From the NCBI GenBank assembly GCA_015709715.1, contig CP054184.1:186001-250000 (forward strand): a stretch of DNA of 64,000 bases, read 5' to 3'. The DNA is from Nitrospira sp. GTDB taxonomy: Bacteria > Nitrospirota > Nitrospiria > Nitrospirales > Nitrospiraceae. The notes beneath the pieces were generated by a model. The model was given only the letters and a program-made list of their open reading frames with translations, was not told the DNA's origin and searched no databases. The position numbers were made by a program, and so were the translations under genes. Each line of letters opens with the position of its first letter. The stretch's first letter is position 1. Below, piece after piece: positions 1-17,872 of the stretch.

Positions 1-580
1 CGTGTTCTTCCAGCGCATAGTCCTCTCCCCACACCCGATTGAGAAGTTCCTGGCGGGGCAAGACCATGCCGGGATGCAGAAGTAGCTGGCGGAGGATCTG
101 AAATTCCTTCGGGGTCAGATCCACAAGTTTGTCCTCAACCCGAACTTCATACCGGGCGACATCCATCGCAATTTTGTTTACCTGCAGCAATGACGTCTGA
201 GCAGTCGCCATCTGTTGCCGGCGCAGAATGGCGCGGATGTGCGCAACCAGTTCGCGAGAACTGGGCGAGCAAAAGACCAGGTCGAAACCTGCCTCAAGAT
301 CGGCAATACAGTCATCTTCGCAGCAAGACTGCTCGAAGGGTTGGATCGCAATCACGGCAACGCCGGTCGGAAAGTGATGCCGTTGCAGGACTTCTTCCAC
401 AAGCAGGCGTCGATCCACGATGACCAGGGCAGGAGTTTTGCACCGCACCTCTTGGACGGCTGCTGAGACCATCCCGACGACTCGTACCTGACACCCGCTT
501 GCCTCAAGCAGCTTCACCGCGTGGCCACCCAACAGAGGATCTGTCGTCACCACCAATACCGAGTCCTGGACCAGTGTCAT
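1..580 (-). CDS. OmpR/PhoB-family response regulator (3' end outside window)
   Basis: The minus-strand reading frame starts at ATG 578-580 and runs off the left edge (193 codons visible). The N-terminal 120 residues resemble a receiver domain with the phosphoacceptor-like Asp in ALVIVDRR, but the usual acidic pair reads TTD and the Lys expected before the last helix is replaced (VFCSPSSREL). The C-terminal part is a winged-helix DNA-binding domain (VDLTPKEFQILRQLLLHPG, then LLNRVWGED), as in PhoB/OmpR. It is divergent from a phosphate-type porin gene, with Pho-box-like repeats between them, so it may be the Pho regulator or a paralog (inference). No kinase is visible in the window. The receiver may not be phosphorylated normally. 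Confidence 0.85.
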   Translation of the reverse strand, partial: MTLVQDSVLVVTTDPLLGGHAVKLLEASGCQVRVVGMVSAAVQEVRCKTPALVIVDRRLLVEEVLQRHHFPTGVAVIAIQPFEQSCCEDDCIADLEAGFDLVFCSPSSRELVAHIRAILRRQQMATAQTSLLQVNKIAMDVARYEVRVEDKLVDLTPKEFQILRQLLLHPGMVLPRQELLNRVWGEDYALEEH

Positions 581-640
581 GCTCGTGCCCCTCCCGACAC
601 CCAGCCTAGAGGGTCGGCGTTGTTTCAGTGTCATCGCCCT

Positions 641-657
641 GTTACAGACGCGTAAAC
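641..657 (-). promoter_or_regulatory. Pho-box-like direct repeat before the regulator gene
   Basis: On the minus strand TTTAC (656-652) and GTAAC (645-641) are spaced 11 bp start to start, about 60 bp upstream of the regulator start at 580. The same 11-bp periodic TTAAC-like pattern recurs in front of several phosphate genes here. The match is weaker than at the pstS genes. It may allow autoregulation (inference). Confidence 0.45.
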
Positions 658-689
658 ACTTCCCCTCGGTTGGTTCGCAAAAGGCACTG

Positions 690-706
690 TTTACAGAAAC
701 TTAAGA
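690..706 (+). promoter_or_regulatory. Pho-box-like direct repeat before porin
   Basis: TTTAC (690-694) and TTAAG (701-705) are 11 bp apart, about 100 bp upstream of the porin start. Bacillus PhoP and cyanobacterial SphR boxes are also TTAAC-type repeats with an 11-bp period. Binding by the regulator encoded at 1-580 is inference. Confidence 0.55.
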
Positions 707-806
707 GAGCAGTGATGGTTGTGTCACCGACGACCCCGATACTCACTGGCGTGAAATGAATGGAGCCGTTCGGTTTTCAAACAGGGTCAACCGATTAGGA
801 GGAATG

Positions 807-2309
807 ATGGATTACTGCGGTATGCATGGTTTGAAATGGTCGGCGGCAGCCCTCTGTCTCGGAGGCGTGCTCGTGACGCTGCCTGACTATGTGTCGGCTG
901 GGTCGGGACCGACGCTGATCGCGCAAGGGTCCGCGCAATCGAGTCAGGCGGTGTCGCCCTTCGAGACAGCTCCTCACGCAACCCCGGTTGCGACCGGCGG
1001 CGAGCGTGAAACGTCGGGGCAGCGACTCTCGATTGAGAGCACGTCGTTGGAGAGCCTCTTGCTGGAGAAGGGGATTATCACTCAAGAAGACTGGATTCGG
1101 CTCAAGGCCGAGGAAGAGCGCCGTATTTTCGAGCAGTCGGCAGAACTGCAAATGGCCGGCAATCCGCGCTGGTATGAGCGGATCCGTATCACCGGCTACA
1201 TGCAGTTCAAATACAACATGGGCGCCACCGACCGACGGTTTGATTTGCCCTTAAACGATAGCTTCGGTGATCAACAGGGAAACGAATTCTATGCCCGACG
1301 GCTTCGCCTGGTCTTTCAAGGTCAGGTGTCTGAACGCGTGGCGTTTTTCACCCAGTTCGCCCTGGAGGGCGGGCAGCAGACACTGGCGAACAATGAAATG
1401 ATCGACGCCTATTCGGACTTCTACATCACCAAGGACAAGGAGCATCGGATTCGGTGGGGGCTCCACCGTGTCCCCAACTCCTTCGATACCTACCGATCGA
1501 GCACCAACCGGCAGGAGATGGACCGGCATGAGTCGATCCAAAGCGGCGCGCCGGGCGAACGGGACCTGGGCGTGGCCTACTACTGGAGTCCTAAGATCGC
1601 ACAGGAGCGGTTTGCTCAGCTCGCGGCCTACCACAATGGACCGGGCGACTATGGCGTCTTCGGTATCATGGTCTACAACGGGCAATCCCGGAGCCGCCTG
1701 GAACTGAACAAGGACAAGCATATCGGAGCCAAATTAGCCTATCCGTTTCAGTTTCCGAACGGACGACTGCTGGAAGCCGGCGTCCTCGGCTATCACGGAG
1801 TGTTTGCCGTGCAGGGAGCGAGTCAGCCGACTGTCGCGAGTGCGGCCAGATGTATCAGCCCTCTGACTTCGGAGGGCGGCTGCGATATCAAGGATCAACG
1901 TGTCACTGCCTACGTGTGGACTCCGCCACAACCCTGGGGACTCCTGGCGGAATTCACCGTCGGTCGCGGCCCTAAACGGAACGCTCAGACCAACTTCATC
2001 GAGGAAAGTAATGTGGTTGGTGGCTACGTACAGGGTTATTACACCTGGCGCTACTCCGATGTCGGTATGTTGACCCCTTACGTTCGTTACGGCGAATACT
2101 ATGGAGGTTTCAAATCCTTGAACGGAGCTCCGGATGGACAATCACGGACGTGGAATATTGGTTTGGTGTGGGAGCCTGACACCCATTTCCGGTTTGTGAC
2201 GGACTGGGTGTTTAAGGATGGTTTGAACAGTACCCTCGTCGCGAACCGTGCTCAAAGTGACTTTGACGCATCGCAACTGCGCTTCCAGGCGCAGTGGTTC
2301 TGGAATTAA
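807..2309 (+). CDS. Phosphate-selective porin (OprO/OprP-like) outer-membrane protein
   Basis: This 500-residue protein has a Sec signal peptide (MDYCGMHGLKWSAAALCLGG...) and, at about residues 85-110, a short helical segment with SLESLLLEKGIITQEDW. The rest has the alternating aromatic/polar strands of a porin barrel and ends ...FRFQAQWFW-type in Trp-Asn. It would sit in the outer membrane and pass anions such as phosphate. ATG 807 is preferred because AGGAGG lies at 797-802; ATG codons at 804 and 756 are in frame. A paralogous porin with the same N-terminal motif lies at 10392-11921. A Pho-box-like repeat upstream supports induction by phosphate starvation (inference). Confidence 0.85.
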   Translation: MDYCGMHGLKWSAAALCLGGVLVTLPDYVSAGSGPTLIAQGSAQSSQAVSPFETAPHATPVATGGERETSGQRLSIESTSLESLLLEKGIITQEDWIRLKAEEERRIFEQSAELQMAGNPRWYERIRITGYMQFKYNMGATDRRFDLPLNDSFGDQQGNEFYARRLRLVFQGQVSERVAFFTQFALEGGQQTLANNEMIDAYSDFYITKDKEHRIRWGLHRVPNSFDTYRSSTNRQEMDRHESIQSGAPGERDLGVAYYWSPKIAQERFAQLAAYHNGPGDYGVFGIMVYNGQSRSRLELNKDKHIGAKLAYPFQFPNGRLLEAGVLGYHGVFAVQGASQPTVASAARCISPLTSEGGCDIKDQRVTAYVWTPPQPWGLLAEFTVGRGPKRNAQTNFIEESNVVGGYVQGYYTWRYSDVGMLTPYVRYGEYYGGFKSLNGAPDGQSRTWNIGLVWEPDTHFRFVTDWVFKDGLNSTLVANRAQSDFDASQLRFQAQWFWN

Positions 2310-2324
2310 AAGACCTGTCCTTCA

Positions 2325-2354
2325 GGGTGTCCGGAATCGCAGTTCCGGGCACCC
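2325..2354 (+). terminator. Hairpin terminator after porin
   Basis: A 12-bp stem (2325-2336 with 2343-2354, one G-T pair) and a 6-nt loop lies 16 bp after the porin stop codon and is followed by a pyrimidine-rich but not T-only tract. It is a likely transcription end. The rest of 2310-2504 shows nothing else. Confidence 0.6.
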
Positions 2355-2504
2355 TCCTTCTCAGGACCGAGTCCGACCAATCTCACCTCTCCGCCGCCAC
2401 TGTACCGAGGTTGACCCTGCGTGCGAGCGAGGCCTCAGCGATCCTCGATTACCAAGACCGAGGCGGGTACGACCAACGGTTTGTGGACTGCGGCCCGAGT
2501 CGCG

Positions 2505-3200
2505 TCATGGGGCTGGAGGGACAGGCGATGGTTTAGGCTCAGAGGCTAGACGTTGGAGGTCGATGGTCAGGATACGGCCCTCATCGATGTAAGGCCAGGA
2601 CGGCCGCTTCTCAGCCGGTACGACAGCCGAGGGTGAGGCAAACTCTACTCGAAAACTCGTCCGAGAAATGGGAACGAGCGGACTATCGATGGGATCAAAA
2701 TCCGTCACCATGTTTTGATTCATCCCGTCGGTCGGGAGTGTCCGATCGTTAGCGAGGATGACGATCAGATAGTCGCCCTGCGCGAACAGTCCCCCGGAGG
2801 TAATCGCCAACCCGACGCCGGCGTCGGAAAAGCGACGATAAAACGTTACCAGCTCATCGGGCTTGGCTTCCGTCAACGCGCGACTGAGTTTCGGGGCCAA
2901 TGCCTGGATCTCAGCGGATGAAAAGGCTGGGTTGGCTTGAGCCTGTCCCGTGATCAAGGACCCGATAAATCCCGTCCGGGGTACGACCCGCAGGCCGCCA
3001 AGAACACGGGTCATCTGCTCGGGTGATACATGAGCCGGGTGGTCATGCCCGGTGTTGGAGTGATCATCCTTATAGAGCCGGATGGCGGTGATGGGATCTT
3101 GATACAGGGTTCGCGGCGGTAGAGGTGCCGCGCAACCGAATTGCGACACGATAACAAGGAGAAACGTGAGCACGAGTGATCGACACAGTGTGGGGTCCAT
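2505..3200 (-). CDS. Uncharacterised lipoprotein, phosphate-region family
   Basis: The 231-residue product begins MDPTLCRSLVLTFLLVIV with a lipobox-like SQFGC, so it is probably a lipid-anchored envelope protein. I chose ATG 3200 because GGAG lies 9 nt upstream; ATG 3215 is in frame. The body has no motif I recognise. It is visibly paralogous to the lipoprotein at 8548-9438: both carry HPA-x-x-SP, a G-x-IGSL/TIVGL-type segment, an ALTEAKPD/ALRQATPE segment, and GGLFAQG/GALFLRG followed by a hydrophobic strand. It lies downstream of pstS1 beyond a terminator. Function unknown; a role in the phosphate-starved envelope is inference. Confidence 0.7.
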   Translation of the reverse strand: MDPTLCRSLVLTFLLVIVSQFGCAAPLPPRTLYQDPITAIRLYKDDHSNTGHDHPAHVSPEQMTRVLGGLRVVPRTGFIGSLITGQAQANPAFSSAEIQALAPKLSRALTEAKPDELVTFYRRFSDAGVGLAITSGGLFAQGDYLIVILANDRTLPTDGMNQNMVTDFDPIDSPLVPISRTSFRVEFASPSAVVPAEKRPSWPYIDEGRILTIDLQRLASEPKPSPVPPAP

Positions 3201-3298
3201 TGATTCGATCTCCATTGTATGGCTTGTCAGGTACAGGCGGTCGGGAGGTCCTGTGATGTCCACGTCGGAATCGATCTCGCATCGTATCAGAGAAATGC

Positions 3299-3332
3299 AA
3301 AAAAGGGAGCGTCCGACATGTCGAACGCTCCC
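3299..3332 (-). terminator. Rho-independent terminator of pstS1
   Basis: The hairpin arms are GGGAGCGT (3305-3312) and ACGCTCCC (3325-3332), with a further GACATGTC palindrome inside. On the minus strand it is followed by six T residues (complement of 3304-3299). It lies just downstream of the pstS1 stop, so it ends that transcript before the lipoprotein gene. Confidence 0.9.
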
Positions 3333-3374
3333 GATTCCTTCAGTAGACGAGAGATTCGTTGCTCTCTAACGCGT

Positions 3375-4526
3375 TTACCGTTCGGCCACTTGCAAATCAG
3401 GATCGGGGACCGTGACCACAGCCTTATTGGCCAATCCCAGGCCCTGAAGATTCGTTGCTACCTGGGTGGCGCTGAGTGGATAGAGGCTCGCACGTGCGAC
3501 CGTCTCCTGCCCCTGGCGACTGTTGACGAAGGCCAGAAATTCTTCAACGATCGGATCCAGTTTCTCTTTCGGGCTCTTCTTCACATAAAGATACAAGGAA
3601 CGGCTCAGCGGATAGGCACCGGAGGTGACGGTGTCCACCGACGGCAACAGGGCCGGTCCTTCGGGTTGGGCGGCGATGGGAACCTGGCGCACGGCCGAGA
3701 TGTTGAAGCCAGCGCCGGCATAGCCGACGGCCAGAGGGTCCTGAGCGATCGCCAGGACCTCTGACGCCGAGCCGGGCTGTTCAATGACGCCGTCCACCAG
3801 ATCCCCGTCCTTCAGGGCGACATGCTTGAAAAATTCCCTAGTGCCGGATCGTTTGTCTCGCCCGTACAGATGCACCGGCTGCTTCGCCAGCGCCGAATTG
3901 CCCACCCCCAGTTGGCTCCAATTGGTAATGGAATCGAGTCCTCGCTTATGTTCCTTGCCGAAAATGGCGTCCACCTCCGCCAAGGTCAGTCGCTGAATTG
4001 GATTGTCCTTGTTCACATAGACGGCGACGGCGTCCATGGCAATGGGCACCTCCAGGGGACGATAGCCATAATTGGATTCAAATCCCTTGGACTCTGCCTC
4101 CGTCAACTGCCGGGAAGAAGCGAGCAACTCAACCGTGTTGGAGCCGGCAGTTCCACGGCTTTGAGCCTTGTCCCCGCGTCGTTGATAGGAGAGACCCAGC
4201 AAAAACTCGCGAATGGCTGCGCTCGAGCCGGTCCCCTCGACCGCAATTTGTGCACCGGGATGGAGACTCGAGAACTGCGCCGCAAGCTTTGAAATCAGCG
4301 GCCTCATGGTGTCCGACCCAGCAATGCTCAGTTTCCCCTGGAGGCCGTTCTGGGTGGCATAGGGTGCGATGCCAGGGGCGACGATTGGTCCACCGTCGAC
4401 ACTGAGCCCTGCATGTTCCGCCGCTGCCTGGCCCGCGAACAGCGTCAGCAGGGTGCCGGCTGTGATTGCCATGAGCAGCGAAACTCTACTCCCCTCGTAG
4501 CCAGAACGTGTCTGCTCTTCACTCAT
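3375..4526 (-). CDS. pstS: PstS-like phosphate-binding protein 1
   Basis: This 383-residue periplasmic binding protein has a signal peptide ending near GQAAAEHA. It would deliver phosphate to the PstCAB transporter. Family signs are KLSIAGSDTMRPLISKLA, a VEGTGSS segment, AMDAVAVYVNKDNPIQ, LYGRDKRSGTREFFKH (SGT contacts phosphate in the family) and YPLSRSLYLYV near the C-terminus. The start at 4526 is set by GGAGGAAC just upstream; a longer in-frame start at 4637 would add a non-signal extension. It is monocistronic, with a terminator after it and Pho-box repeats before it. It is one of three PstS paralogs in this region. Confidence 0.93.
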   Translation of the reverse strand: MSEEQTRSGYEGSRVSLLMAITAGTLLTLFAGQAAAEHAGLSVDGGPIVAPGIAPYATQNGLQGKLSIAGSDTMRPLISKLAAQFSSLHPGAQIAVEGTGSSAAIREFLLGLSYQRRGDKAQSRGTAGSNTVELLASSRQLTEAESKGFESNYGYRPLEVPIAMDAVAVYVNKDNPIQRLTLAEVDAIFGKEHKRGLDSITNWSQLGVGNSALAKQPVHLYGRDKRSGTREFFKHVALKDGDLVDGVIEQPGSASEVLAIAQDPLAVGYAGAGFNISAVRQVPIAAQPEGPALLPSVDTVTSGAYPLSRSLYLYVKKSPKEKLDPIVEEFLAFVNSRQGQETVARASLYPLSATQVATNLQGLGLANKAVVTVPDPDLQVAER

Positions 4527-4636
4527 GTCGTTCCTCCGTATGAAAGTGATATCAGTCCTTGCACAGCCGCGTGAGCCAACGTGCGCCTCAATGTCCCTAT
4601 GGCTCACCATGATAGGAGACCCCGATTGCCACCCCA

Positions 4637-4663
4637 TTAGGGCATGGTTAACTCTGTGTTAAC
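4637..4663. promoter_or_regulatory. Pho-box-like repeats between pstS1 and the small membrane gene
   Basis: GTTAAC occurs at 4647-4652 and 4658-4663 (11-bp period), with a weaker TTAGG at 4637, again 11 bp away. GTTAAC is palindromic, so the site could serve either divergent unit; it is 120 bp from the pstS1 start. It is among the clearest copies of the motif in the window. Confidence 0.7.
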
Positions 4664-4734
4664 TTTCCCGATCCAAGTGATTCTTCGCTCGTTTGCCCCG
4701 CCGAGCCTTCCTCGGCCTGAGGTCGGCCCACGAA

Positions 4735-4751
4735 GTAACGTCGCCGTAACG
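4735..4751 (+). promoter_or_regulatory. Pho-box-like repeat before the small membrane gene/psiE
   Basis: GTAACG is repeated at 4735-4740 and 4746-4751, exactly 11 bp apart and about 85 bp upstream of the 39-codon gene that leads into the psiE-like gene. Confidence 0.55.
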
Positions 4752-4832
4752 CTGTCTTGAGTTGCTCGGAACAACAGTCTTCTACACTGCAAAGCGACGA
4801 TTGATCTTCCCGCTCATAGAGGAGGCGTTCCG

Positions 4833-4952
4833 ATGTCGACAGAATTATTGATGACTCCAATTTCAACCGACGCAACGTTCTTTATCACCATGTCGCTCCT
4901 GGTAGGACTGTTCATGGGTCTATGGTCCGTCATGATCAAGAATGGATGGTGA
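4833..4952 (+). CDS. 39-residue single-pass membrane peptide
   Basis: This short gene starts at ATG 4833 after a strong GAGGAGG (about 4819-4825) and ends at TGA 4950-4952. The product has a polar N-terminus (MSTELLMTPISTDAT) and one hydrophobic segment (FFITMSLLVGLFMGLWSVMI), ending KNGW. It is 52 bp upstream of the psiE-like gene in the same direction and behind two Pho-box-like repeats, so it may be a small phosphate-starvation membrane protein. I do not recognise a family. The strong ribosome-binding site and clean membrane segment argue that it is real. Confidence 0.6.
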   Translation: MSTELLMTPISTDATFFITMSLLVGLFMGLWSVMIKNGW

Positions 4953-5004
4953 GCTCGAATCGTGACGGCCTTCAGGCCCCTTATCATGAAAGGAACCAGC
5001 ACGG

Positions 5005-5514
5005 ATGACGTCGCTTAATCTTCAACCTCGTCTCCCTCGAATCAATGTGTTCCTGGATCGGCTCTTAGATACCGATCTCACCGATGTCTGGGTAAAGGGC
5101 ATCAAGACGGTGTTGAGCCTACTCATCGTGACGATCTTGGCAGCGTTGGCCGGCGGTGTCATCAAGACCTTCCTGGATATCCGCTTCATCATCGAAGGGC
5201 CGGTGGAAGTGGGGCTCCGCCACATCATCGTGGATACCCTCATTCTGCTGGCAGTGGTCGAGGTGTTCAAAACCACGTTGACGTACTTTTCAGAAGGCCG
5301 CGTGAAGGTCACCTTCATCGTCGATACCATCCTGGTGGTGATGTTGACGGAGATCATTTCGCTCTGGTTCAAGGACGCCGACCACGGCAAATTGCTTTCC
5401 CTGGGAGCCATTCTGCTGGCGCTCGGCGCGATCCGGGTGGTCGCGGTCCGCTGTTCCCCCGTCCATGGAGACGGCAGCGGCAAGGGATGTTTCGGTGGGC
5501 GCGGTGAGAACTAG
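5005..5514 (+). CDS. PsiE-family phosphate-starvation-inducible membrane protein
   Basis: The 169-residue protein has four hydrophobic segments (about residues 30-52, 70-85, 105-122 and 130-145). Segments such as RHIIVDTLILLAVVEVFKTT, YFSEGRVKVTFIVDTILVVM and LGAILLALGAIRVVAVR fit the PsiE family (phosphate-starvation-inducible E). The start ATG 5005 has AAAGGAACC upstream. PsiE proteins are inner-membrane proteins of unknown mechanism that are induced by phosphate limitation in Escherichia coli. The Pho-box-like repeats ahead of the preceding small gene fit that expression pattern. Confidence 0.8.
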   Translation: MTSLNLQPRLPRINVFLDRLLDTDLTDVWVKGIKTVLSLLIVTILAALAGGVIKTFLDIRFIIEGPVEVGLRHIIVDTLILLAVVEVFKTTLTYFSEGRVKVTFIVDTILVVMLTEIISLWFKDADHGKLLSLGAILLALGAIRVVAVRCSPVHGDGSGKGCFGGRGEN

Positions 5515-5533
5515 ACACGTCCGATCCGGACAA

Positions 5534-5549
5534 TTTACCCCACGTTAAC
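5534..5549 (+). promoter_or_regulatory. Pho-box-like direct repeat before the small winged-helix gene
   Basis: TTTAC (5534-5538) and TTAAC (5545-5549) are 11 bp apart, about 113 bp upstream of ATG 5663. This is the same pattern as at the pstS genes. Confidence 0.6.
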
Positions 5550-5662
5550 GTCTCCCTGAGACGGCAGTGATTCAATGGGCGTACACCGTACCCATACGTT
5601 GAACGGCTTCCGTGACCGCCGCTCGATCGTCTGCCCACCAACCCCCAACCAGGAGGACCACC

Positions 5663-5902
5663 ATGGTGCCTTCACCCGTCTCTTTGGAGAGTGCCACATT
5701 AGTCCGCGATCTCTTGAGCGTTCGTCGGTCCGTCACGTTGGAGCAACTCGTGGCCTTGCTGCCCGAGCTCACCTGGAACCAGGTGTTCACCACCGTGGAT
5801 GAGCTAAGCCGACGCGGTGAGATCCTGCTCTTCCGGCGCGGATTCACGTACGAAGTCGAGTGGTCGGCTGCCAGGCCCAAGACGTTTTTCTGTGTCGGGT
5901 GA
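5663..5902 (+). CDS. Small winged-helix-like protein
   Basis: The 79-residue product starts at ATG 5663, 8 nt after AGGAGG; the in-frame upstream ATG 5612 lacks such a site. Residues about 10-62 look like a helix-turn-helix with a wing: VRRSVTLEQLVALLPELTWN, then VFTTVDELSRRGEILLFRRG, then a beta strand. It is probably a small DNA-binding or protein-binding domain. It has a Pho-box-like repeat upstream and lies between psiE and a transporter gene. Its target is unknown. Confidence 0.65.
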   Translation: MVPSPVSLESATLVRDLLSVRRSVTLEQLVALLPELTWNQVFTTVDELSRRGEILLFRRGFTYEVEWSAARPKTFFCVG

Positions 5903-6031
5903 GCGTGCTTGACTGCTCAACCGTCGGCGTGTAATCCCAATGTTCATGGACCAGCACGCTTCCCACACAGAACAAGATCTCGACATGGCTGCAGCGGAAA
6001 CACCCAAGTATGGCGTGAGGGCTGTCGGAAT

Positions 6032-6814
6032 ATGGAAGTCGTGCTGATCGGCGTAGCGGCCTTGCTGGCCTCCGGCCTGACCTTCTTCTCCGGGTTCGGC
6101 GTGGGGACGATCCTGATGCCGGTGTTCGCGCTGTTTTTTCCAGTCCCGCTGGCCATCGCGGCCACGGCAGTGGTGCACTTCGCCAACAATCTCTTCAAAT
6201 TCGGATTAATGGCCAAGCAGGCCGACTGGCGAGTGGTGGCTCGATTCGGTGTTCCGGCGGCCTTCGCCGCGATGGGTGGAGCGGTTCTCCTGACGCTGTT
6301 TGATCGGCTGCCGGTCGTGGCCAATTACAGTCTGGGCGATTCGACGTTCACGGTCACAACCGTCAAGGCGGTGATCGGTGTCCTCATCATGGTGTTTGCC
6401 TTGTTGGAATTCTGGCCACGCTTTCAATCCTTGACGTTCCCGCCGCGTTGGCTCCCACTGGGAGGAGCGCTGTCGGGATTCTTCGGCGGCCTGTCCGGCA
6501 ACCAAGGCGCATTCCGTTCGGCCTTCCTGTTGAAAGCCGGCCTGTCGAAAGAGGCCTTTGTCGCAACCGGCATTGTCTCAGCGGTCATCGTGGATGCCTC
6601 ACGGCTCTTGGGGTACGGCATCGGGTTCATGACCGGTCAGTTCACGCAATTCGGCGAACTGGCGGCGCCGGTCTTCGTGGGCACGGTCTGCGCGTGTATG
6701 GGTTCGTATGCGGGGATGCGGCTGTTGCAGAAGGTCACGTTCGTCGCTGTGCGGATTGTAGTCGCTGCAGGGATGTTGTTGATCGGCCTCGGGCTCATCA
6801 CTGGATTGCTCTAG
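6032..6814 (+). CDS. TauE/SafE-family membrane transporter
   Basis: This 260-residue polytopic protein has about eight membrane segments. Typical TauE/SafE features are the N-terminal GLTFFSGFGVGTILMPVFALFFPV repeat segment and the second-half GALSGFFGGLSGNQGAFRSAFL. The family exports or imports small organic or inorganic anions such as sulfite and sulfoacetate across the inner membrane; the substrate here cannot be read from sequence. ATG 6032 was chosen because the membrane domain starts directly after it; an in-frame ATG at 5909 would add an arginine-rich extension. No strong ribosome-binding site is visible. It overlaps the convergent regulator remnant by about 17 bp. Confidence 0.8.
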   Translation: MEVVLIGVAALLASGLTFFSGFGVGTILMPVFALFFPVPLAIAATAVVHFANNLFKFGLMAKQADWRVVARFGVPAAFAAMGGAVLLTLFDRLPVVANYSLGDSTFTVTTVKAVIGVLIMVFALLEFWPRFQSLTFPPRWLPLGGALSGFFGGLSGNQGAFRSAFLLKAGLSKEAFVATGIVSAVIVDASRLLGYGIGFMTGQFTQFGELAAPVFVGTVCACMGSYAGMRLLQKVTFVAVRIVVAAGMLLIGLGLITGLL

Positions 6815-7272
6815 CCGGACGGCATGCGCCCAGCCCCGCCGCGTGGAATCGATAGCGGAATCTCGGCAAGATTTCGATCGAACCCGCATCGCTGTTCTCG
6901 AGCGTACGGCGAAGGGTGCGAACGTATTGCTCCGCGTCCTCCGGCGGCATGCCCCGGTGGTCTCCCCCCAAAGCAGCAAGAAAACCCGCGGCCGATACCA
7001 GTTCACCTGCTCGCGCCAACATGAATCGGAGGATGGACCGTTCCATGTCCGAGACCGTGAGCTGGCGCTGTTGCAGGGAGACGACAAAACATGACTCCTG
7101 CCCCCTGAGCGACCCATTGGAGAGCATGGGCGCCGGCGAAATGGATGGCCGACTTCGACGTAGGACCGCCTGGACGCGTGATACGACCTTGCGTGGCCTG
7201 TTTCAGCGCGCGCTCAAGCAGCTGGGCATGAAGCGGTTCGTCTTCGATGATCTGGATCAGCGGAGCGATCAT
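6798..7272 (-). pseudogene. Response-regulator remnant with frameshift
   Basis: Two minus-strand frames carry pieces of one OmpR-type regulator. The first (from ATG 7272) reads IAPLIQIIEDEPLHAQLLERALKQ, a receiver start with the EDE acidic cluster. The second, in another frame and ending at 6798, reads LTVSDMERSILRFMLARAGELVSAAGFL...YVRTLRRTL, a winged helix. The middle of the receiver, including the phosphoacceptor Asp and the Lys region, is missing, and total length is about 158 codons instead of about 230. Deletion plus frameshift is the simplest reading. A sequencing error could explain the frameshift but not the missing segment. Confidence 0.55.
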
Positions 7273-7329
7273 ACGGAAATATGGTATGGCCGACAGGTTC
7301 CCCTGGCTCAGCATTCGGTTGCGGGACGG

Positions 7330-7366
7330 TTAACTCAGAAGGCGGGAAAGTTAACAATTCTGTAAC
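7330..7366 (+). promoter_or_regulatory. Pho-box-like repeats before pstS2
   Basis: TTAAC occurs at 7330-7334 and 7351-7355 and GTAAC at 7362-7366. The last two are 11 bp apart and the first is 21 bp (about two periods) upstream. The block ends 70 bp before the pstS2 start codon. Confidence 0.7.
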
Positions 7367-7435
7367 ATTCCGTTGTTCTCGTCGCAATCAGGCTTTTCTA
7401 GGCTCGTGGTCACGATTCAGAACAGGAGACCACCC

Positions 7436-8539
7436 ATGACGCAGTCAGACCTCGCCTTCCGCCGCCCCTTGCGATGGATTCATACGCTCCGCCTCGTCGG
7501 CGTCTTGCTCATCCTCCTGTGCGCCTTCCCAGCCCAGGCGGAACAGAGCGGGCCGTTCGCGAGCTTGATGGTTGACCCCAGCCTCGATCGATATGTCGCA
7601 AAGTCGCAGATCATCGGGGGATTCCGTGTCCAGGGGTCCGACACCATGCATGCGTTGATGCGGCGATTGGTCTCGGACTTCCAAAGCCGCCAGCCCAAGG
7701 TGGCTGTGGAACTGCGATCCGGCGGTTCGACGAAGGCCATCGCCGAGTTTGTCGAGCCGCCTCAACCAGGACGCATCGTGGTGAAGGAGGAACGCGCGAA
7801 ACAGGCGCTGCTGGTGAGTAGTTCGCGGGAATTGACGGATACCGAGGTGAAGCAGTTCGAGGCGCAACGAGGGTACGAGCCCCTTCGTGTTCCCATTGCC
7901 GTGGACGCGGTCGCGCTCTATGTCCACAAGGACAATCCACTGCAGGGCCTGACGTTGGATCAGGTCGATGCAATCTTCTCAACGTCCCGACAGCGTGGGT
8001 TCTACAAAGACATTACCCTCTGGGGCGATTTAGGCTTGCCCGACGGATGGGCGAAGGCGCCGATCCAACTGTATGGGCGGGATCGGAAGTCCGGAACCAG
8101 GGCCTTCTTCCAGGAGCACGTGCTCGCGGGAGGGGAATTCAAACCGAGTCTCCACGAAGAACCAGGCGCCGCGTCGGTGATCCTGGCACTCAGCCGCGAC
8201 CAGGTAGGGATTGGGTTCAGTGGTATTGGACTCCAGGCCTCCAGCGTGCGTATCCTGCCGATTGCAGAAGCGGACGGCATGCCGCTGGTGACGCCCTCAC
8301 CGACTACCGTGGCCGACCAGAGCTACCCGCTCCGCCGCCTCCTCTATTTGTATTTCGACAAGGAGCCCGCCGCCGCCTTACCGCCGGCGATCCAGGAATT
8401 CTTGGAGTTTGTGAAAAGCCGTGAGGGACAGGAAGCCGTGGTGCGAGCGGGCTTTTACCCCTTGCCGATGGATCAAGTCGAAAAACTCTCAGTGGCGCTG
8501 AAGTCACCGCCTTCCAGCGAAGGCCCAACCAAACAATAG
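7436..8539 (+). CDS. pstS: PstS-like phosphate-binding protein 2
   Basis: This 367-residue periplasmic phosphate-binding protein has a signal peptide (RLVGVLLILLCAFPAQAEQ). Family segments are FRVQGSDTMHALMRRLV, AVDAVALYVHKDNPLQGLT, LYGRDRKSGTRAFFQEHVL and SYPLRRLLYLYFDKE. ATG 7436 has CAGGAG upstream. It is a single-gene unit behind Pho-box-like repeats and converges on the lipoprotein gene at 8548-9438 with only 8 bp between stops. Having separate PstS proteins may give different affinities or expression thresholds (inference). Confidence 0.93.
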   Translation: MTQSDLAFRRPLRWIHTLRLVGVLLILLCAFPAQAEQSGPFASLMVDPSLDRYVAKSQIIGGFRVQGSDTMHALMRRLVSDFQSRQPKVAVELRSGGSTKAIAEFVEPPQPGRIVVKEERAKQALLVSSSRELTDTEVKQFEAQRGYEPLRVPIAVDAVALYVHKDNPLQGLTLDQVDAIFSTSRQRGFYKDITLWGDLGLPDGWAKAPIQLYGRDRKSGTRAFFQEHVLAGGEFKPSLHEEPGAASVILALSRDQVGIGFSGIGLQASSVRILPIAEADGMPLVTPSPTTVADQSYPLRRLLYLYFDKEPAAALPPAIQEFLEFVKSREGQEAVVRAGFYPLPMDQVEKLSVALKSPPSSEGPTKQ

Positions 8540-8547
8540 GCGCAGAA

Positions 8548-9438
8548 TCAGCGGGTGGTCGATTTCTTGGAGGGTGCAGGCCGTGGCGCCTGGCCCTTCA
8601 AGCCCTTCCGAATCCTCGCCAGTTCTTCCTTCAGATCTTGAAGCTCTCGGCTCTGCTGACTCAGCCGATCTCGAAGATCGAGGTTCGACTGGGTCAACTC
8701 GCGGATTTGCGTCCGCAGCTCCTGGGCGGGCTCCGTCGATGGTGAGGACGGCTTGACCTGGCTTTGCACCGTGGCGGGTTGCCTGTTGACGGATAGGTGG
8801 ACGGTTTCAAAGGGCGCCCACGCAGGCTCCTCCAAGGGCGGCAACCTGACGGCCTCATGCGGTGCCGAGGCCACCAGTGCCATGCCCTTCGTGTCTCGGA
8901 CATCCCGCTCCTCTCCTCCCGCCGTATCCGCCCTCAGGAAGGCCTTGTGGTCCGTGAGCACGAGATGTACATGCGGTCCTCTCAGAAACAGGGCTCCGGC
9001 AGTGGCATCGCCATAGGGTGAAGCAGGATTCGGCAGCCTGAAGAAGACCCGCTGCTCCGGTGTGGCCTGCCGTAAGGCTTCGGCAATCGGGGTGACCACG
9101 AGCCGGAGGTCGGCGTCGTCGAACAGACGGATGGCACGCGGGCTGTCGAAGAGTCCTACGATCGTGCCACTCCAGCCGCTGACGCGAAAGGACGCCAAGA
9201 GCGGAAGGAGGTCTTGTGGCGACAGCGCGGCAGGGTGCGCGTTGAACGCGGGCGGGGACGATCGCCGGATGGAAGGGTCAGGTTCGACCCCGACCTGAAC
9301 CCCTTCTCGATCATAGACCAGCCGTCCCGTTCCAAAGGCTTGGCAACCGGTCATCAGCAGCAGACAGAGCCCCACGCACCACCAGAACCGTGACGCGAAG
9401 CGACGAGCATGTCGCGGAGCCGACTTTCCTAGCGACAT
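8548..9438 (-). CDS. Uncharacterised lipoprotein with C-terminal coiled coil
   Basis: The 296-residue product starts at 9438, with GGGGAG about 10 nt upstream, and has a basic signal peptide ending in the lipobox LLMTGC. Residues about 55-210 form the same unknown domain as the lipoprotein at 2505-3200. The C-terminal 70 residues are a heptad-rich coiled coil (LRTQIRELTQSNLDLRDRLS...LKEELARIRKGL) followed by a basic tail (KKSTTR). Its start overlaps the end of the preceding small lipoprotein gene, so the two are likely translated together. The coiled coil suggests it oligomerises or reaches across the periplasm. Function unknown. Confidence 0.72.
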   Translation of the reverse strand: MSLGKSAPRHARRFASRFWWCVGLCLLLMTGCQAFGTGRLVYDREGVQVGVEPDPSIRRSSPPAFNAHPAALSPQDLLPLLASFRVSGWSGTIVGLFDSPRAIRLFDDADLRLVVTPIAEALRQATPEQRVFFRLPNPASPYGDATAGALFLRGPHVHLVLTDHKAFLRADTAGGEERDVRDTKGMALVASAPHEAVRLPPLEEPAWAPFETVHLSVNRQPATVQSQVKPSSPSTEPAQELRTQIRELTQSNLDLRDRLSQQSRELQDLKEELARIRKGLKGQAPRPAPSKKSTTR

Positions 9439-9785
9439 TCGAACTGGACTCCCCACAGGCGGTCCATCCCCATCTGCCCTCGCCACGCGCGGTCGGCGGC
9501 TTTACTCACCTTGGGAATTTCACCCTCTCGCAGAATGTGAGATCCCCCGGGGCATTTTGCGGCGATGAGACGAAAGGCGTCACGTCGTCCCGAAGACGCT
9601 AAGACCTCCGCATCGGTTTCGTAGTGATAGGACACGAGCCCGCCCCGTTCGCTTTCGCGCACCATTGTCGCATCACCGACACAACCTGCCGTGATCAGAA
9701 GAAGCAGCAGCAGACCGATGCCCCACTGGGAACCGGCTGCTCCGGCTCCTGACCGATCGGGACAGGAATGCGCATTCCAGCTCAC
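9429..9785 (-). CDS. Small lipoprotein of unknown function
   Basis: This 118-residue protein has a hydrophobic signal with lipobox LLITAGC near residue 35 and a short mixed domain containing several Cys (KCPGGSHI, QFEC) and Trp residues. It is the middle gene of a three-lipoprotein operon: it overlaps the Slp-like gene by 4 bp (ATGA type) and the next lipoprotein start by 10 bp. I do not recognise a family, though the YHYETDAEVLA... segment is like small envelope-stress lipoproteins. The operon lies between two phosphate genes. Confidence 0.65.
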   Translation of the reverse strand: MSWNAHSCPDRSGAGAAGSQWGIGLLLLLLITAGCVGDATMVRESERGGLVSYHYETDAEVLASSGRRDAFRLIAAKCPGGSHILREGEIPKVSKAADRAWRGQMGMDRLWGVQFECR

Positions 9786-10321
9786 GGTTGCACGGTGCAG
9801 AGCGTCTCTTCCTCCAACGGTTCGTAGCCGCCGCCCGCGTTATAGGGGAATTCGGCAATTTCCTTCCCGCCCGTGTTCCACACATGCAGGCAGCGGCCGG
9901 CCAAGGAGGGCAGGTTGCGCTGGACGTCGTCGACGACCACGACCCTCGCCTGCTCGGTCGTCCCGATCACGATCAGGCGATTCCCGGCCCTCAGCCATTT
10001 CGCATTGAGCGTCCCGTTATAACGGATTGCAAATTCCCCCGATCGCCGTCCGCCGTCTTTCGGCCCGTAGGCGGGCTGCTGCACGATAGGCAACTGCGTC
10101 ACGATGATGACCACCCCGTCGGCGGTGCTGTTCACCTGGACGATCCGGCCGCCCAGTTCGACTTTTTGGCCGGTCTTGGCATTGGGAATGGTCCGCCAAG
10201 CCGTGAAATCGAAATTCCGGTCCGTGTCGGCCGCCACATCGACCGGAAAGAGTTGCGTGTGGCCGCATCCGACCAGGGTGAGCCCGGCACAGAGAGCCAT
10301 GGTGGTTAGCACGCGAGTCAT
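9782..10321 (-). CDS. Slp-family outer-membrane lipoprotein
   Basis: This 179-residue protein has signal/lipobox LTLVGCGHT. The segment VELGGRIVQVNSTADGVVIIV followed by TQLPI...GRRSGEFAIRYNG and LRAGNRLIVIGT matches the Slp/YeaY family (starvation-inducible outer-membrane lipoproteins). Start ATG 10321 is preceded by GGAGAAACATC; a longer in-frame start has no signal peptide. It heads the three-gene lipoprotein operon and lies downstream of the second porin gene on the same strand (70 bp), so it could be co-transcribed with it. Slp proteins are linked to carbon starvation or stationary phase in enterics; the function here is inferred only from family. Confidence 0.75.
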   Translation of the reverse strand: MTRVLTTMALCAGLTLVGCGHTQLFPVDVAADTDRNFDFTAWRTIPNAKTGQKVELGGRIVQVNSTADGVVIIVTQLPIVQQPAYGPKDGGRRSGEFAIRYNGTLNAKWLRAGNRLIVIGTTEQARVVVVDDVQRNLPSLAGRCLHVWNTGGKEIAEFPYNAGGGYEPLEEETLCTVQP

Positions 10322-10391
10322 GATGTTTCTCCTTACGCTTTCCAGGGTGACTTTGCAACCGGACCCGGAGTCATCGGGACACTTCGCCGGG

Positions 10392-11921
10392 CTACATGAA
10401 TCGAATTTGGAACTGAACCAGAAAGGCGTTCTGCGCAAACGCATCGAAGGTCGCATCATAAGGCACCCCGGGGCCGTTCCCTTGGTGATGCCGGAACTCG
10501 TAGTTGAACTGGATCTTGGACTGCACCTTCGGCGGGAAATTCTCAAAGTAATAGGTGAGGCCCAGAATAGTGCGGGTGTAGAGGTCGTTGGAGACGCTCG
10601 TGCTGGGGTCGAACTGCTCGTACATGACCGTCGGCTCCCAGTTCTGCAGAGGACCGCTCGAGATCAGATACTTCGCGAGGACGTACCAGGTTCGCCGATG
10701 GGCGCCCGGCGCACCGGAGCCGCCGCAGACGGTCTGGTCGAGGCAGGCGCCGTTGGCGGGTCTGCCGACCGTGGTTTGGTTGGACCCATCGTGTCCCTGC
10801 CACCATTCACCCTGCACCATGAAGCCCGGGATGACCTTTGAGGTGTACCGGAAATCGAGGCCATATCGATCGAAAGCGCCTTTCCCCCGACCGTTGATGT
10901 TGGTGTTGGCGTTGTTGGACTCCCCTTGAATGGTGGTGAAACTGATCCAGGACACGTCGCTGCCGAACAGGCGCACGCGGGTATAGAAACTCTTGGGGGC
11001 GTTCGCCCCGGTGGCATTCGCGTGAAAGTTGTTGTTGTTCATGATGCCGGCGACATACTCAAGTCGGTTGAAGAGTTTGCCTCGCACATCGACGAAGAAA
11101 TCTCGCTCCTGCAGGAAGTCGATCGTTCCCGCCGACCCCGTGCGGTTGCCGTTGCCGCTGCCCACAGAAGTCAAGTATGGCGAACTGATGATGTCGCGCA
11201 GGCCGCCGGAGGTTTCCGTGAAGATGCCGAACGGCATCCGGAAGATACCCATGCGGATGAAGTTCATGTAGGGCGCCCAGGACTGAACGGGGCGGAAGTC
11301 GATGTACGACTCACGGAAAAACGTCGCGGCGATCGGCTGACCCGTGGCGGCCCCGCTGCCTCCCGTCGGCGTTTCCCGACCGAAGTTGATGCTTTGAAAC
11401 TCCATCAAGGCATGCCACCGCGGCAGCGTGTCGCTGATACGGCCCCAGAATAAAATTTCCGAACGGCGGATGGAGAAATTGTCTTGGCTCTTTCCCTCCG
11501 GGACGTGGGCGTCCTGGTGACTATACAGAAACTGCAATGCATTCAACCCGAAGTTCACCTTATCCCGTAGCATCGGCAACAGTTCGGTCCTGGTTTTCCA
11601 GTCCTCGATCGCATCGATGCGCCTGGCGTTCTCCGCTCCGCGATATTCCTGTTCGGCGCGAATTTGAATCCATTCGTCCATCGTGATGGAGCCCTTTTGA
11701 AGCAGCAGGTCTTCCAGGGAGGTGCCGCCGGGCGGGAGGACGGTCGACGTCCGCTCGGAGGCATCCGAACTTCCCGTTGGCTCAGCCTGAGCAACGAGCC
11801 GCGGCCGCCCGTCACGTGACTCTAAGCCGCCGCGCTCCCCTGCTTGAGCTAACGAGGCGAAGCTCCACAAGGCGGTTCCGACCAAACCAATCGTGGCCAG
11901 TAGATTCAGCAGGGATTTCAT
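10392..11921 (-). CDS. Phosphate-type porin 2 (OprO/OprP-like)
   Basis: The 509-residue outer-membrane protein has a signal peptide (MKSLLNLLATIGLVGTALWS...AQA). Like the porin at 807-2309 it has a helical segment before the barrel (TSLEDLLLQKGSITMDEWIQ versus TSLESLLLEKGIITQEDW), so the two are paralogs. The barrel part has repeated aromatic strand ends and finishes FLVQFQIRFM, a normal C-terminal outer-membrane signature. ATG 11921 has GAGAGGAG upstream. It is divergent from pstS3, with four TTAAC-like repeats in between, so both genes may respond to the same regulator. Confidence 0.85.
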   Translation of the reverse strand: MKSLLNLLATIGLVGTALWSFASLAQAGERGGLESRDGRPRLVAQAEPTGSSDASERTSTVLPPGGTSLEDLLLQKGSITMDEWIQIRAEQEYRGAENARRIDAIEDWKTRTELLPMLRDKVNFGLNALQFLYSHQDAHVPEGKSQDNFSIRRSEILFWGRISDTLPRWHALMEFQSINFGRETPTGGSGAATGQPIAATFFRESYIDFRPVQSWAPYMNFIRMGIFRMPFGIFTETSGGLRDIISSPYLTSVGSGNGNRTGSAGTIDFLQERDFFVDVRGKLFNRLEYVAGIMNNNNFHANATGANAPKSFYTRVRLFGSDVSWISFTTIQGESNNANTNINGRGKGAFDRYGLDFRYTSKVIPGFMVQGEWWQGHDGSNQTTVGRPANGACLDQTVCGGSGAPGAHRRTWYVLAKYLISSGPLQNWEPTVMYEQFDPSTSVSNDLYTRTILGLTYYFENFPPKVQSKIQFNYEFRHHQGNGPGVPYDATFDAFAQNAFLVQFQIRFM

Positions 11922-12014
11922 GGACGCTCCTCTCTCATCAGAAGACATGCATGCTCATCCAGACTGTCAGGCGCAGAGCTAAGCGCGAGAGGTCACGGGG
12001 AAATTGCCGCAATG

Positions 12015-12051
12015 TTACAGGAGCGTTAATTAGAATTAACCGCCTCTTAAC
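12015..12051. promoter_or_regulatory. Four-copy Pho-box-like array between porin 2 and pstS3
   Basis: TTACA (12015), TTAAT (12026), TTAAC (12036) and TTAAC (12047) follow at 11, 10 and 11 bp. This is the longest array in the window. It sits 61 bp before pstS3 and about 95 bp before the divergent porin start, so it can control both. Confidence 0.75.
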
Positions 12052-12111
12052 ACGGGTGCCATGTTCACGAAATACAGTCGCAGTACCGTGAGGCAACGAA
12101 AGGACGCCATT

Positions 12112-13113
12112 ATGCCTGATCTTGTGGTTCGTGTGCGGACAACAATGAGCGTGGTCACGATCCTGGCTCTTTATGTACTGATCATCCTTCCGCCGGCTTG
12201 CGCCGGCCAATCCGATGGGAAAGAGGCTTCGCTGCGGCCTTATCAAAAGGTCAGCGGCGTCTCCGGCACCATCAACAGCATCGGCTCCGATACCCTGAAC
12301 AATCTGATCACCCTCTGGGCCGAGGGGTTCCGGAAGCAATATCCCAACGTCAAGATCCAGGTCGAAGGGAAGGGCTCCAGCACCGCTCCGCCAGCCCTCA
12401 TCGAGGGCACCGCGCAACTGGGCCCTATGTCGCGCACCATGAAGTCCAGCGAGATTGATGCATTTGAATCCAAGTTCGGGTATCCGCCCACCGCCTATCC
12501 GGTGGCGGTGGATGCCTTAGCCCTCTTCGTCAACAAGGACAATCCCATCAAGGGGTTCACGATTCCCGAAGTCGATGCGTTGTTCTCCAAGTCCCGGCGG
12601 CAAGGCCACACGGCCGACATTACTCGCTGGGGGGAAATGGGCTTGAACGGTGATTGGGCTACCGCCCCGATCAGCCTGTACGGCAGAAATTCCGCGTCAG
12701 GCACCTATGGGTTTTTCAAAGAACATGCGCTCAAGAATGGAGACTTCAAGGATCACGTGAAGGAGCAGCCAGGCTCCGCCTCGGTCGTGCAGGGCATCAG
12801 CGAAGACCGCAACGGCATCGGGTACAGCGGAATCGGGTACACCACGTCGGGGGTCCGGATGGTGCCGTTGGCAGCGAAGGCCGGGCAGCCCTTCGTGGAG
12901 CCGACCCAGGCCAACACGAGAAACGGGAGTTATCCGCTCTGGCGGTATCTCTACATTTACGTGAATCAAGCACCGGGCAAGCCCCTTCCTCCGATCGTCA
13001 CGCAGTTCTTGACCTATGTCTACAGCAAGGAAGGCCAAGCCGATGTGCTCCGAGATGGGTACTTCCCTGTCGAGGGGAGCGTGGCCGAGCAGCAGCTGGC
13101 GAAAATCCGGTAA
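12112..13113 (+). CDS. pstS: PstS-like phosphate-binding protein 3 (operon copy)
   Basis: This 333-residue periplasmic phosphate-binding protein has a signal peptide ([21 protein letters not shown]). Family segments are [62 protein letters not shown] and [17 protein letters not shown] 12112 has GAAAGGA upstream. It is 24 bp from pstC and is the first gene of pstS-pstC-pstA-pstB-phoU-ppx, so it is the copy most likely to be matched to this transporter. The four-copy repeat array lies upstream. Confidence 0.95.
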
Positions 13114-13137
13114 CGGGAAAAGGAGTCGTTGGGGGAG

Positions 13138-15342: not shown

Positions 15343-15348
15343 GGACCG

Positions 15349-16977: not shown

Positions 16978-16995
16978 CCCTTGAGAGGAGTGTCC

Positions 16996-17853
16996 ATGGA
17001 CATGCAGTCTGAACGTTTGGCGATACCGGCGCCGGCCACCTTCCCCTCCCCTTCCGCCAAGATCAGACCGGCCCGTGAACCGCAACCGGCCTCCCCCCTG
17101 GATGCCAAGGTCCTGGTGCGGGGGTTGGACTTTTTCTACGGGGAGCGGCAGACTCTGTTTCGCGTCTCGTTGACGGTCCGCAGCCATTCCGTCACGGCGT
17201 TCATCGGCCCATCCGGCTGCGGCAAGTCCACTCTGCTCCGCTGCCTGAACCGAATGAACGACCTGGTCGAAGGCGCCAGGATCGCCGGTCGAGTGGAATT
17301 GGACGGCGTCGACATCTACAGCCTGGGCATCGACGTCACCGACCTCAGGAAACGCGTGGGCATGGTCTTCCAGAAATCCAATCCGTTTCCCAAATCCATC
17401 TACGACAACGTGGCCTACGGGCCGCGTCTGCATGGAACCCGAGACAAACGCCGGCTGGACGAACTGGTGGAACAGAGCCTGAAGGGTGCAGGCCTCTGGG
17501 ACGAGGTCAAGGACCGGCTGGCACAGAGCGCCCTGGGACTGTCAGGAGGGCAACAACAGCGTCTCTGCATCGCGCGCGCCCTCGCGGTCCAGCCGGAGGT
17601 CATCCTGATGGACGAGCCCTGTTCGGCCCTCGACCCGATTGCGACCGCCAAGATCGAAGAGCTCATTTATACCTTGAAGGATACCTACACCGTCGTGATC
17701 GTGACGCACAACATGCAACAGGCCGCACGCGTCTCGGATCAATGCGGCTTTTTCCTGATGGGCGAGCTGGTCGAGTTCGGGGATACCAAACACATCTTCA
17801 CCACGCCGCGCGATAAGCGGACCGAAGACTACATTACCGGTCGCTTCGGATAG
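16996..17853 (+). CDS. pstB: Phosphate ABC transporter ATPase PstB
   Basis: This 285-residue cytoplasmic ABC ATPase drives phosphate import through PstCA. The Walker A motif GPSGCGKST is at residues 71-79, the Q-loop is at [19 protein letters not shown], the signature is LSGGQQQR, Walker B is [15 protein letters not shown] and the switch His is in [12 protein letters not shown] 16996 follows GAGAGGAG by 5 nt. It has a Pro/Ala-rich N-terminal extension of about 35 residues before the first strand. It is followed by phoU, 19 bp away. Confidence 0.97.
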
Positions 17854-17872
17854 AGACGGAGGGAGGCGCAGG

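What the first reader, a model, noticed from the sequence alone, without database searches (positions are those of the whole stretch)
641..12051. An 11-bp-period TTAAC repeat marks a local phosphate regulon of about seven sites
Direct repeats of TTAAC or a close variant spaced 11 bp (one of 10) lie upstream of porin 1/the regulator (641-657, 690-706), pstS1 and the small-peptide/psiE unit (4637-4663, 4735-4751), the small winged-helix gene (5534-5549), pstS2 (7330-7366) and porin 2/pstS3 (12015-12051). The genes behind them are phosphate genes by family. The motif resembles Bacillus PhoP and cyanobacterial SphR boxes more than the Escherichia coli Pho box. It gives a rule to find further members of the regulon and implicates two unknown small genes.
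Basis: partly seen in the sequence, partly recalled or inferred. Interest (0 to 1): 0.82.

Follow-up and report, generated by a model that had tools for sequence, protein, structure and literature searches.

The report
Nitrospira phosphate-starvation DNA switch boxes
A nitrite-oxidising Nitrospira bacterium appears to turn on its phosphate-scavenging genes from promoters in which a 44-base, four-times-repeated switch sequence replaces a normal promoter element, and the regulator gene kept beside them has lost the chemistry by which such regulators are normally switched on.

Summary
The TTAAC repeats are the strongest parts of a four-unit, 11-bp-period box (44 bp). A matrix trained only on other Nitrospira genomes finds eight such boxes in the 64-kb window, all at 0.6-12.1 kb and all pointing at the gene behind them; the best score elsewhere is 4.0 against at least 20.7. 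In a 4.16-Mb genome scan a covariance model returned seven hits, all in this cluster. A pattern scan added a CBS-domain gene just left of the window and a remote dksA/traR-type zinc-finger gene beside ppk1.

Exactly 8 nt after the box lies a -10 hexamer TANNNT. It was not used in training, yet 99% of 134 genus sites have its A. Outside the genus, 87 of 119 sites fit at this offset and at most 11 at any other. So this is a PhoB-type operator in place of the -35 element.

The neighbouring regulator is not an ordinary PhoB. It is a genus-wide pseudo-receiver lacking the acidic pair and the lysine, while a normal phoB-phoR pair lies 1.4 Mb away. Other Nitrospirota with only normal PhoB carry the same boxes, so the box is probably the old PhoB operator, now possibly shared. 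Binding and phosphate response are untested.

The parts
617..660 (-). Pho box (4 x 11 bp) for the local regulator RR1; -10 TAGGCT at 603-608 (-)
   Evidence: matrix score 27.4; -10 at +8; conserved in relatives
2..580 (-). RR1: OmpR/PhoB-type regulator with pseudo-receiver (runs off the window; gene ends at L001:9891). The start at 580 is preferred because the longer ORF start (634) lies inside the box.
686..729 (+). Pho box for porin 1; -10 GATACT at 738-743
   Evidence: score 23.1
783..2309 (+). phosphate-selective porin O/P family (ORF; the exact start codon was not set)
   Evidence: PF07396 1.5e-16
4623..4666 (-). Pho box for pstS1 (GTTAAC x2 exact); -10 TATCAT at 4609-4614 (-)
   Evidence: score 32.6
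3375..4526 (-). pstS1, phosphate-binding protein
   Evidence: PF12849 2.3e-37 (longer ORF); TIGR02136 183.9 bits, below its 206.6 cut-off
4731..4774 (+). Pho box for the 39-aa peptide / psiE unit; -10 TACACT at 4783-4788
   Evidence: score 25.7
4833..4952 (+). 39-aa peptide, conserved in position before psiE in relatives (47-67% identity)
5005..5514 (+). psiE-family gene
   Evidence: PF06146 3e-11
5530..5573 (+). Pho box for the small winged-helix gene; -10 TACACC at 5582-5587
   Evidence: score 20.7
5663..5902 (+). 79-aa small winged-helix protein, genus-conserved, no Pfam family
   Evidence: 16-row alignment; AF2 order H-S-H-H-S-S, pLDDT 81; no Pfam match
6798..7314 (-). decayed canonical response-regulator gene (RR2; intact in relatives), frame broken
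   Evidence: two overlapping ORFs in different frames; PF00486 below cut-off; relative with own box in L093
7294..7337 (-). weak, degraded box pointing at the decayed RR2 gene
   Evidence: score 14.3
7347..7390 (+). Pho box for pstS2; -10 TAGGCT at 7399-7404
   Evidence: score 33.7
7436..8539 (+). pstS2
   Evidence: PF12849 1.3e-31
11990..12033 (-). Pho box for porin 2; -10-like TAGCTC at 11976-11981 (-)
   Evidence: score 24.1
12032..12075 (+). Pho box for pstS3-pstCAB-phoU-ppx; -10 TACCGT at 12084-12089 (so pstS3 probably starts at ATG 12112, not 12061)
   Evidence: score 31.1
12112..20094 (+). pstS3, pstC, pstA, pstB, phoU, ppx operon
   Evidence: pstS3: TIGR02136 257.6 bits; the rest by sequence and conserved order in relatives

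Best explanation
This is a compact Pho regulon. Shown by sequence: each promoter carries a four-unit direct repeat (about A-R-A-GTTAAC-N5-GTTAAC-N6-xTGA-N7-GxAAY, period 11), then a -10 hexamer TANNNT that begins 8 nt after the 44-bp box; there is no separate -35 element, and the box is oriented toward its gene. By family knowledge this is the operator of a PhoB/PhoP-type winged-helix regulator that binds head to tail, one subunit per 11-bp turn, and recruits RNA polymerase in place of -35 contacts. Inferred: under phosphate limitation two dimers fill the box and switch on porins, PstS proteins, the Pst system, PsiE, RR1 itself, the small genes and (outside the window) a CBS protein and a zinc-finger protein. 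The box is probably the ancestral Nitrospirota PhoB operator, read by PhoB from the distant phoB-phoR pair. The Nitrospira-family paralog RR1 (pseudo-receiver, invariant recognition helix, its own box) probably reads the same box without phosphorylation, as a co-activator or competitor whose level rises through its own box. My confidences: box and regulon about 0.93; canonical PhoB reads it about 0.7; RR1 reads it about 0.65; both about 0.5.
For: Training excluded this genome, yet eight sites were recovered in the window, and the covariance model's seven genome hits all fall in this cluster. The pattern scan agrees, with two added members (scores and ORFs). The -10 sits at a fixed offset although it was not used in training: A 99%, last T 95% of 134 sites; outside the training genus xAxxxT is at offset 8 in 87 of 119 sites and in at most 11 at any other offset. 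Genus-wide scan: 24 of 24 good genomes match, most with 4-14 hits against 0-2 control hits; the lowest, G027, has one. Box, gene order and orientation are conserved in relatives. Canonical PhoB as reader: L199, L191/L192 and L201 have canonical PhoB, no RR1 at E<=1e-30 in their genomes and boxes near their pst genes, and the phoB of L192 has its own box. RR1 as reader: boxes flank RR1 in nearly all Nitrospira loci, including lineages outside training; the DNA-recognition segment is invariant in 22 orthologs while the receiver diverged; family genomes with RR1 have 8.5 boxes on average against 3.3 without.
Against: No expression or binding data exist. 'Phosphate' rests on gene families, not on a measured response. 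The RR1-box correlation is confounded by presence of the pst cluster; G027 lacks both. G027 keeps the zinc-finger box (score 17.9) without RR1, so RR1 cannot be the sole reader unless that box is a relic. The canonical phoB-phoR locus of this genome has no box, unusual if PhoB autoregulates. Two of the eight -10 elements lack the final T (TACACC, TAGCTC). Orthologous promoters are not independent observations.
Confidence: 0.8

Rival explanations
1. RR1 alone reads the boxes in Nitrospira; canonical PhoB has moved to other targets (for example pit).
For: RR1 lies in the cluster and has its own box. Its recognition segment EEHALDVHIH[SA]LR differs from PhoB's TTRTVDVHVRRLK. Box number tracks RR1. 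The phoB-phoR locus has no box.
Against: Other Nitrospirota with the PhoB-type helix SRTVDVHIRRLRE and no RR1 carry the same box. Family genomes without RR1 still average 3.3 boxes against 0.7 control.
Confidence: 0.2
2. Canonical PhoB alone reads the boxes; RR1 is itself a target and acts elsewhere or by protein contact.
For: Canonical phoB-phoR (TIGR02966 312.8 bits, just below its 334.2 cut-off; E, D, D, T, K intact in PhoB) is present. Same boxes in genomes with PhoB only. RR1 has a box.
Against: RR1 keeps an intact, almost invariant DNA-binding domain while its receiver decayed, which suggests selection on DNA binding. No other target motif for RR1 was found.
Confidence: 0.25
3. The boxes are real operators of a PhoB-family protein but respond to another signal (for example envelope stress) and control phosphate genes only incidentally.
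For: Part of the regulon (CBS protein, zinc-finger protein, small winged-helix protein, 801-aa protein) has no known phosphate role.
Against: Three pstS genes, the pst-phoU-ppx operon, an O/P-type porin and psiE are behind boxes, and extra pstS genes in relatives are too.
Confidence: 0.05
4. The repeats are chance or compositional.
For: None after testing.
Confidence: 0.01

Closest known systems
Cyanobacterial SphR PHO box (three or more CTTAACCT repeats with 3-bp linker; PMC1906773)
   Same: TTAAC core, 11-bp period, several tandem units upstream of pst genes; also found by phylogenetic footprinting
   Different: Here units 3 and 4 are degenerate (TGA/TAA, GxAAY), the box has four units with a strictly fixed -10, in another phylum, and the co-located regulator is a pseudo-receiver
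E. coli PhoB PHO box (two 11-nt units, CTGTCAT; PMC4415409; about 10 bp upstream of -10 TAN3T, PMC1906773)
   Same: 11-bp direct repeats replacing the -35; the last conserved base of unit 4 is separated by 10 nt from TANNNT
   Different: Core GTTAAC rather than CTGTCAT; four units rather than two as the basic box
Bacillus subtilis PhoP box (four TTAACA-type repeats, period about 11; from own knowledge)
   Same: Four units with a TTAAC core
Pseudo-receiver OmpR/PhoB regulators such as GlnR, ChxR, HP1043 (PMC12632262 and references; PDB 8hih, 2hqr)
   Same: OmpR/PhoB architecture with phosphorylation residues missing; many RR1 keep the Asp, as GlnR does
   Different: RR1 forms its own clade and sits inside a phosphate regulon with its own box; none of the named cases is a phosphate regulator as far as I know

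Membership tests
PHO box (PhoB-type operator) in general | Two or more direct repeats of 11-nt units | tested here: met
   63 near-GTTAAC pairs at distance 11 against 1.6 shuffled; four-unit matrix
PHO box (PhoB-type operator) in general | Replaces -35 at fixed distance from a sigma70 -10 (TAN3T) | tested here: met
PHO box (PhoB-type operator) in general | Precedes pst and other phosphate genes, not random genes | tested here: met
PHO box (PhoB-type operator) in general | Bound by phosphorylated PhoB/PhoP/SphR; transcription induced by low phosphate | not testable with these tools
   needs footprint and RNA-seq
E. coli-type PHO box | CTGTCAT core | tested here: not met
   core is GTTAAC/GTAAC
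SphR-type PHO box | TTAAC-core units, three or more, 11-bp period | tested here: met
   units 1 and 2 match CTTAACCT-like cores; units 3 and 4 are weaker (PMC1906773)
PhoB equivalog (for RR1) | TIGR02154 score over cut-off | tested here: not met
   112.4 bits against 296.2
PhoB equivalog (for RR1) | Phosphorylation residues (acidic pair, D, T, K) | tested here: not met
   58 Nitrospira RR1/RR1-like rows: no row keeps the acidic pair (one Glu at the second position) and none keeps Lys; Thr never (Ser in 4); Asp 50, Glu 7, Gly 1
Pseudo-receiver response regulator (for RR1) | Receiver fold recognised but key residues missing | tested here: met
   definition in PMC12632262
Pseudo-receiver response regulator (for RR1) | Active without phosphorylation | not testable with these tools
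   needs biochemistry
Winged-helix protein (79-aa ORF) | H1-S1-H2-H3-S2-S3 topology | tested here: met
   AF2 model, pLDDT about 91 over residues 11-60; no fold search was run on it

The most novel reading that the evidence does not exclude
A pseudo-receiver paralog of PhoB (RR1), present across Nitrospira, directly occupies the Pho boxes without phosphorylation, so the Pho response there is set by RR1 amount, a ligand or partner contact, or by competition with PhoB, rather than only by PhoR-to-PhoB phosphotransfer. G144 may show an intermediate step: a normal phoB-phoR pair beside an RR1-like protein whose Asp has become Glu, flanked by boxes, though the tree leaves its place unresolved.
Probability: 0.5. 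Interest if true: 0.75.

Novelty: new variant of a known kind. Interest (0 to 1): 0.58.

Why it matters
It gives a working rule (44-bp box, 8 nt, TANNNT) for reading phosphate control across an environmentally important, genetically hard-to-handle genus of nitrifiers, and places several uncharacterised genes (39-aa peptide, 79-aa winged-helix protein, CBS protein, dksA/traR-type zinc-finger proteins, an 801-aa protein) in that response. It also supplies a pseudo-receiver regulator with a defined candidate operator, target genes and likely signal. [quoted passage not shown] here the question becomes directly testable. I found no earlier report of a Nitrospira Pho box in the held open-access library, which does not cover most subscription papers.

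Tried and rejected
1) Two-unit pattern GTTAAC-N5-GTTAAC: too weak on its own (21 genome hits, most outside the window inside ORFs). 2) ppk1 as a member: a two-unit hit lies about 40 bp upstream (C1:3266117), but the four-unit matrix gives no site there; rejected. 3) The hit at C1:3263565, first taken as the 3' end of ppk1, belongs to a separate zinc-finger gene on the other strand. 4) RR1 as sole reader, tested by presence and absence: boxes persist without RR1, so demoted to a rival. 5) E. coli-type CTGTCAT boxes near the fourth PstS-like gene (C1:1200636) and near phoB-phoR: nothing convincing. Model R2 was built but not used. 8) A paper search for the Bacillus TTAACA box gave nothing quotable.
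Full report
WHAT IS THERE. The window is positions 186001-250000 of a 4,156,062-bp single-contig genome. The 641-12051 region and its surroundings hold RR1 (regulator), an O/P-type porin, pstS1, a 39-aa peptide, psiE, a 79-aa protein, a TauE-family gene, pstS2, a porin-like gene and pstS3-pstCAB-phoU-ppx. Much of this gene order is conserved in the genus.

CHECK OF THE OBSERVATION. Pairs of near-GTTAAC words in upstream regions of these genes from the window and its relatives stand 11 bp apart 63 times against 1.6 in shuffles; no other distance exceeds 9 (some divergent regions are counted twice). Iterative footprinting on the relatives alone gave a 44-bp matrix of four 11-bp units with information peaks at the same place in each unit. 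Trained without this genome, it finds in the window eight sites scoring 20.7-33.7, and two weaker ones (15.4 and 14.3) overlapping or beside them. The best score beyond the cluster is 4.0. Each of the eight boxes points at the gene behind it. With the -10 included, eight sites exceed 20 while 30 shuffles reach at most 12.4; the fixed pattern gives 9 matches against 0.20 expected.

GENOME-WIDE. A covariance model of the matrix returned seven hits at E<=10 in 4.16 Mb, all in this cluster. It scores only part of its candidates, so I also used a 16-position pattern: 15 hits at up to 2 mismatches. Nine are at the eight window boxes, one is 69 bp before a CBS-domain gene just left of the window (C1:185252), one is before a 71-aa dksA/traR-type zinc-finger ORF beside ppk1 (C1:3263564; PF01258 6e-10), and four look like chance (reversed-pattern control: 3). 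In 29 Nitrospira genomes the pattern at up to 1 mismatch gives 1-14 hits per genome, the lowest in G027, against 0-3 control hits. Recurrent remote members are zinc-finger genes, an 801-aa protein without Pfam family, the CBS gene and further pstS genes.

PROMOTER ARCHITECTURE. The 44-bp matrix contains no sequence beyond the box. Exactly 8 nt further begins a hexamer with A at position 2 in 99%, T at 6 in 95% and T at 1 in 79% of 134 distinct sites. In loci outside the training genus, using the box matrix alone, xAxxxT is found at offset 8 in 87 of 119 sites and at any other offset in 0-11. The last conserved base of unit 4 is thus 10 nt from the -10, the spacing reported for E. coli boxes (PMC1906773). 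The box therefore occupies the -35 region and beyond. This also suggests two gene starts: RR1 at about 580 and pstS3 at 12112.

THE REGULATOR NEXT DOOR. RR1 is an OmpR/PhoB-type protein by sequence, model and fold search. In an alignment with this genome's PhoB, all 58 Nitrospira RR1 or RR1-like rows lack the acidic pair as a pair (a single Glu at the second position in one) and all lack Lys; Thr is never present (Ser in four); Asp is kept in 50, Glu in 7, Gly in 1. By the definition in PMC12632262 this is a pseudo-receiver. Across 22 orthologs the DNA-recognition segment DYALEEHALDVHIH is invariant. RR1 is one clade, apart from PhoB (100/99 support). A normal phoB-phoR pair followed by pit lies at 1.56 Mb, without a box. 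A second, canonical regulator gene beside pstS2 in relatives is broken here (6798-7314) and its box is degraded.

WHO READS THE BOX. Family genomes with RR1 carry on average 8.5 pattern hits, those without 3.3, control 0.7-0.8. So boxes track RR1 but exist without it, and the correlation is confounded by the pst cluster itself: G027 lacks RR1 and the cluster's pstA yet keeps the zinc-finger box. Outside the family, L199, L191/L192 and L201 have canonical PhoB and no RR1, and boxes precede or neighbour their pst genes; in L192 phoB itself has a box. In G144 (L193/L194) canonical phoB and phoR stand beside an RR1-like protein whose Asp is Glu, with boxes on both sides; the tree does not resolve that protein's place. 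I conclude that the box is the old PhoB operator of the phylum and that RR1 probably shares it. This last step is inference.

SMALL GENES. The 79-aa protein is conserved (16 rows) and is modelled with winged-helix topology. The 39-aa peptide is conserved in position before psiE in relatives. Both are placed in the regulon by their boxes; neither function is known.

COMPARISON. The unit core and period match the cyanobacterial SphR box (CTTAACCT with 3-bp linker, PMC1906773) and the general PHO box of 11-nt units (PMC4415409); the E. coli core CTGTCAT is not met. This is a known kind of operator in a new lineage, with a rigid four-unit form and an unusual resident regulator.

LIMITS. There are no binding, expression or phosphate-response data. 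Orthologous promoters are not independent. The literature search covered only the held open-access library.

Noticed in passing
window 6798-7314 (-): Broken canonical response-regulator gene (RR2) between the TauE-family gene and pstS2, with a degraded box of its own; present in relatives such as L093.
   Followed up: partly
L097, L107, L110 (genomes G004, G008, G003): An 801-aa protein with no Pfam match has a Pho box directly upstream in several Nitrospira genomes.
   Followed up: partly
L002:8658-8873 (+); L098:3078-3509; L108:2719-3117: Small dksA/traR-type zinc-finger genes with Pho boxes (the one in this genome lies beside ppk1) hint at a link between phosphate starvation and RNA polymerase control.
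   Followed up: partly
L160-L170: A second, divergent pseudo-receiver family in Nitrospira (helix FAIGEHTLDVHIHALRKLL, mostly Cys at the Lys position) with almost no boxes nearby (one at 18.5 in L168).
   Followed up: no
window 45461-46417 (-): ORF that looks like an IS5-type transposase (by eye, not searched) inside a polysaccharide-type gene cluster.
   Followed up: no
whole genome G000: GTTAAC-N5-GTTAAC (up to 2 mismatches) is rarer than the same pattern read backwards (21 against 102).
   Followed up: no
L122 and L157: N. moscoviensis carries two RR1 copies about 23 kb apart; the second (L157) stands next to another pst operon.
   Followed up: no
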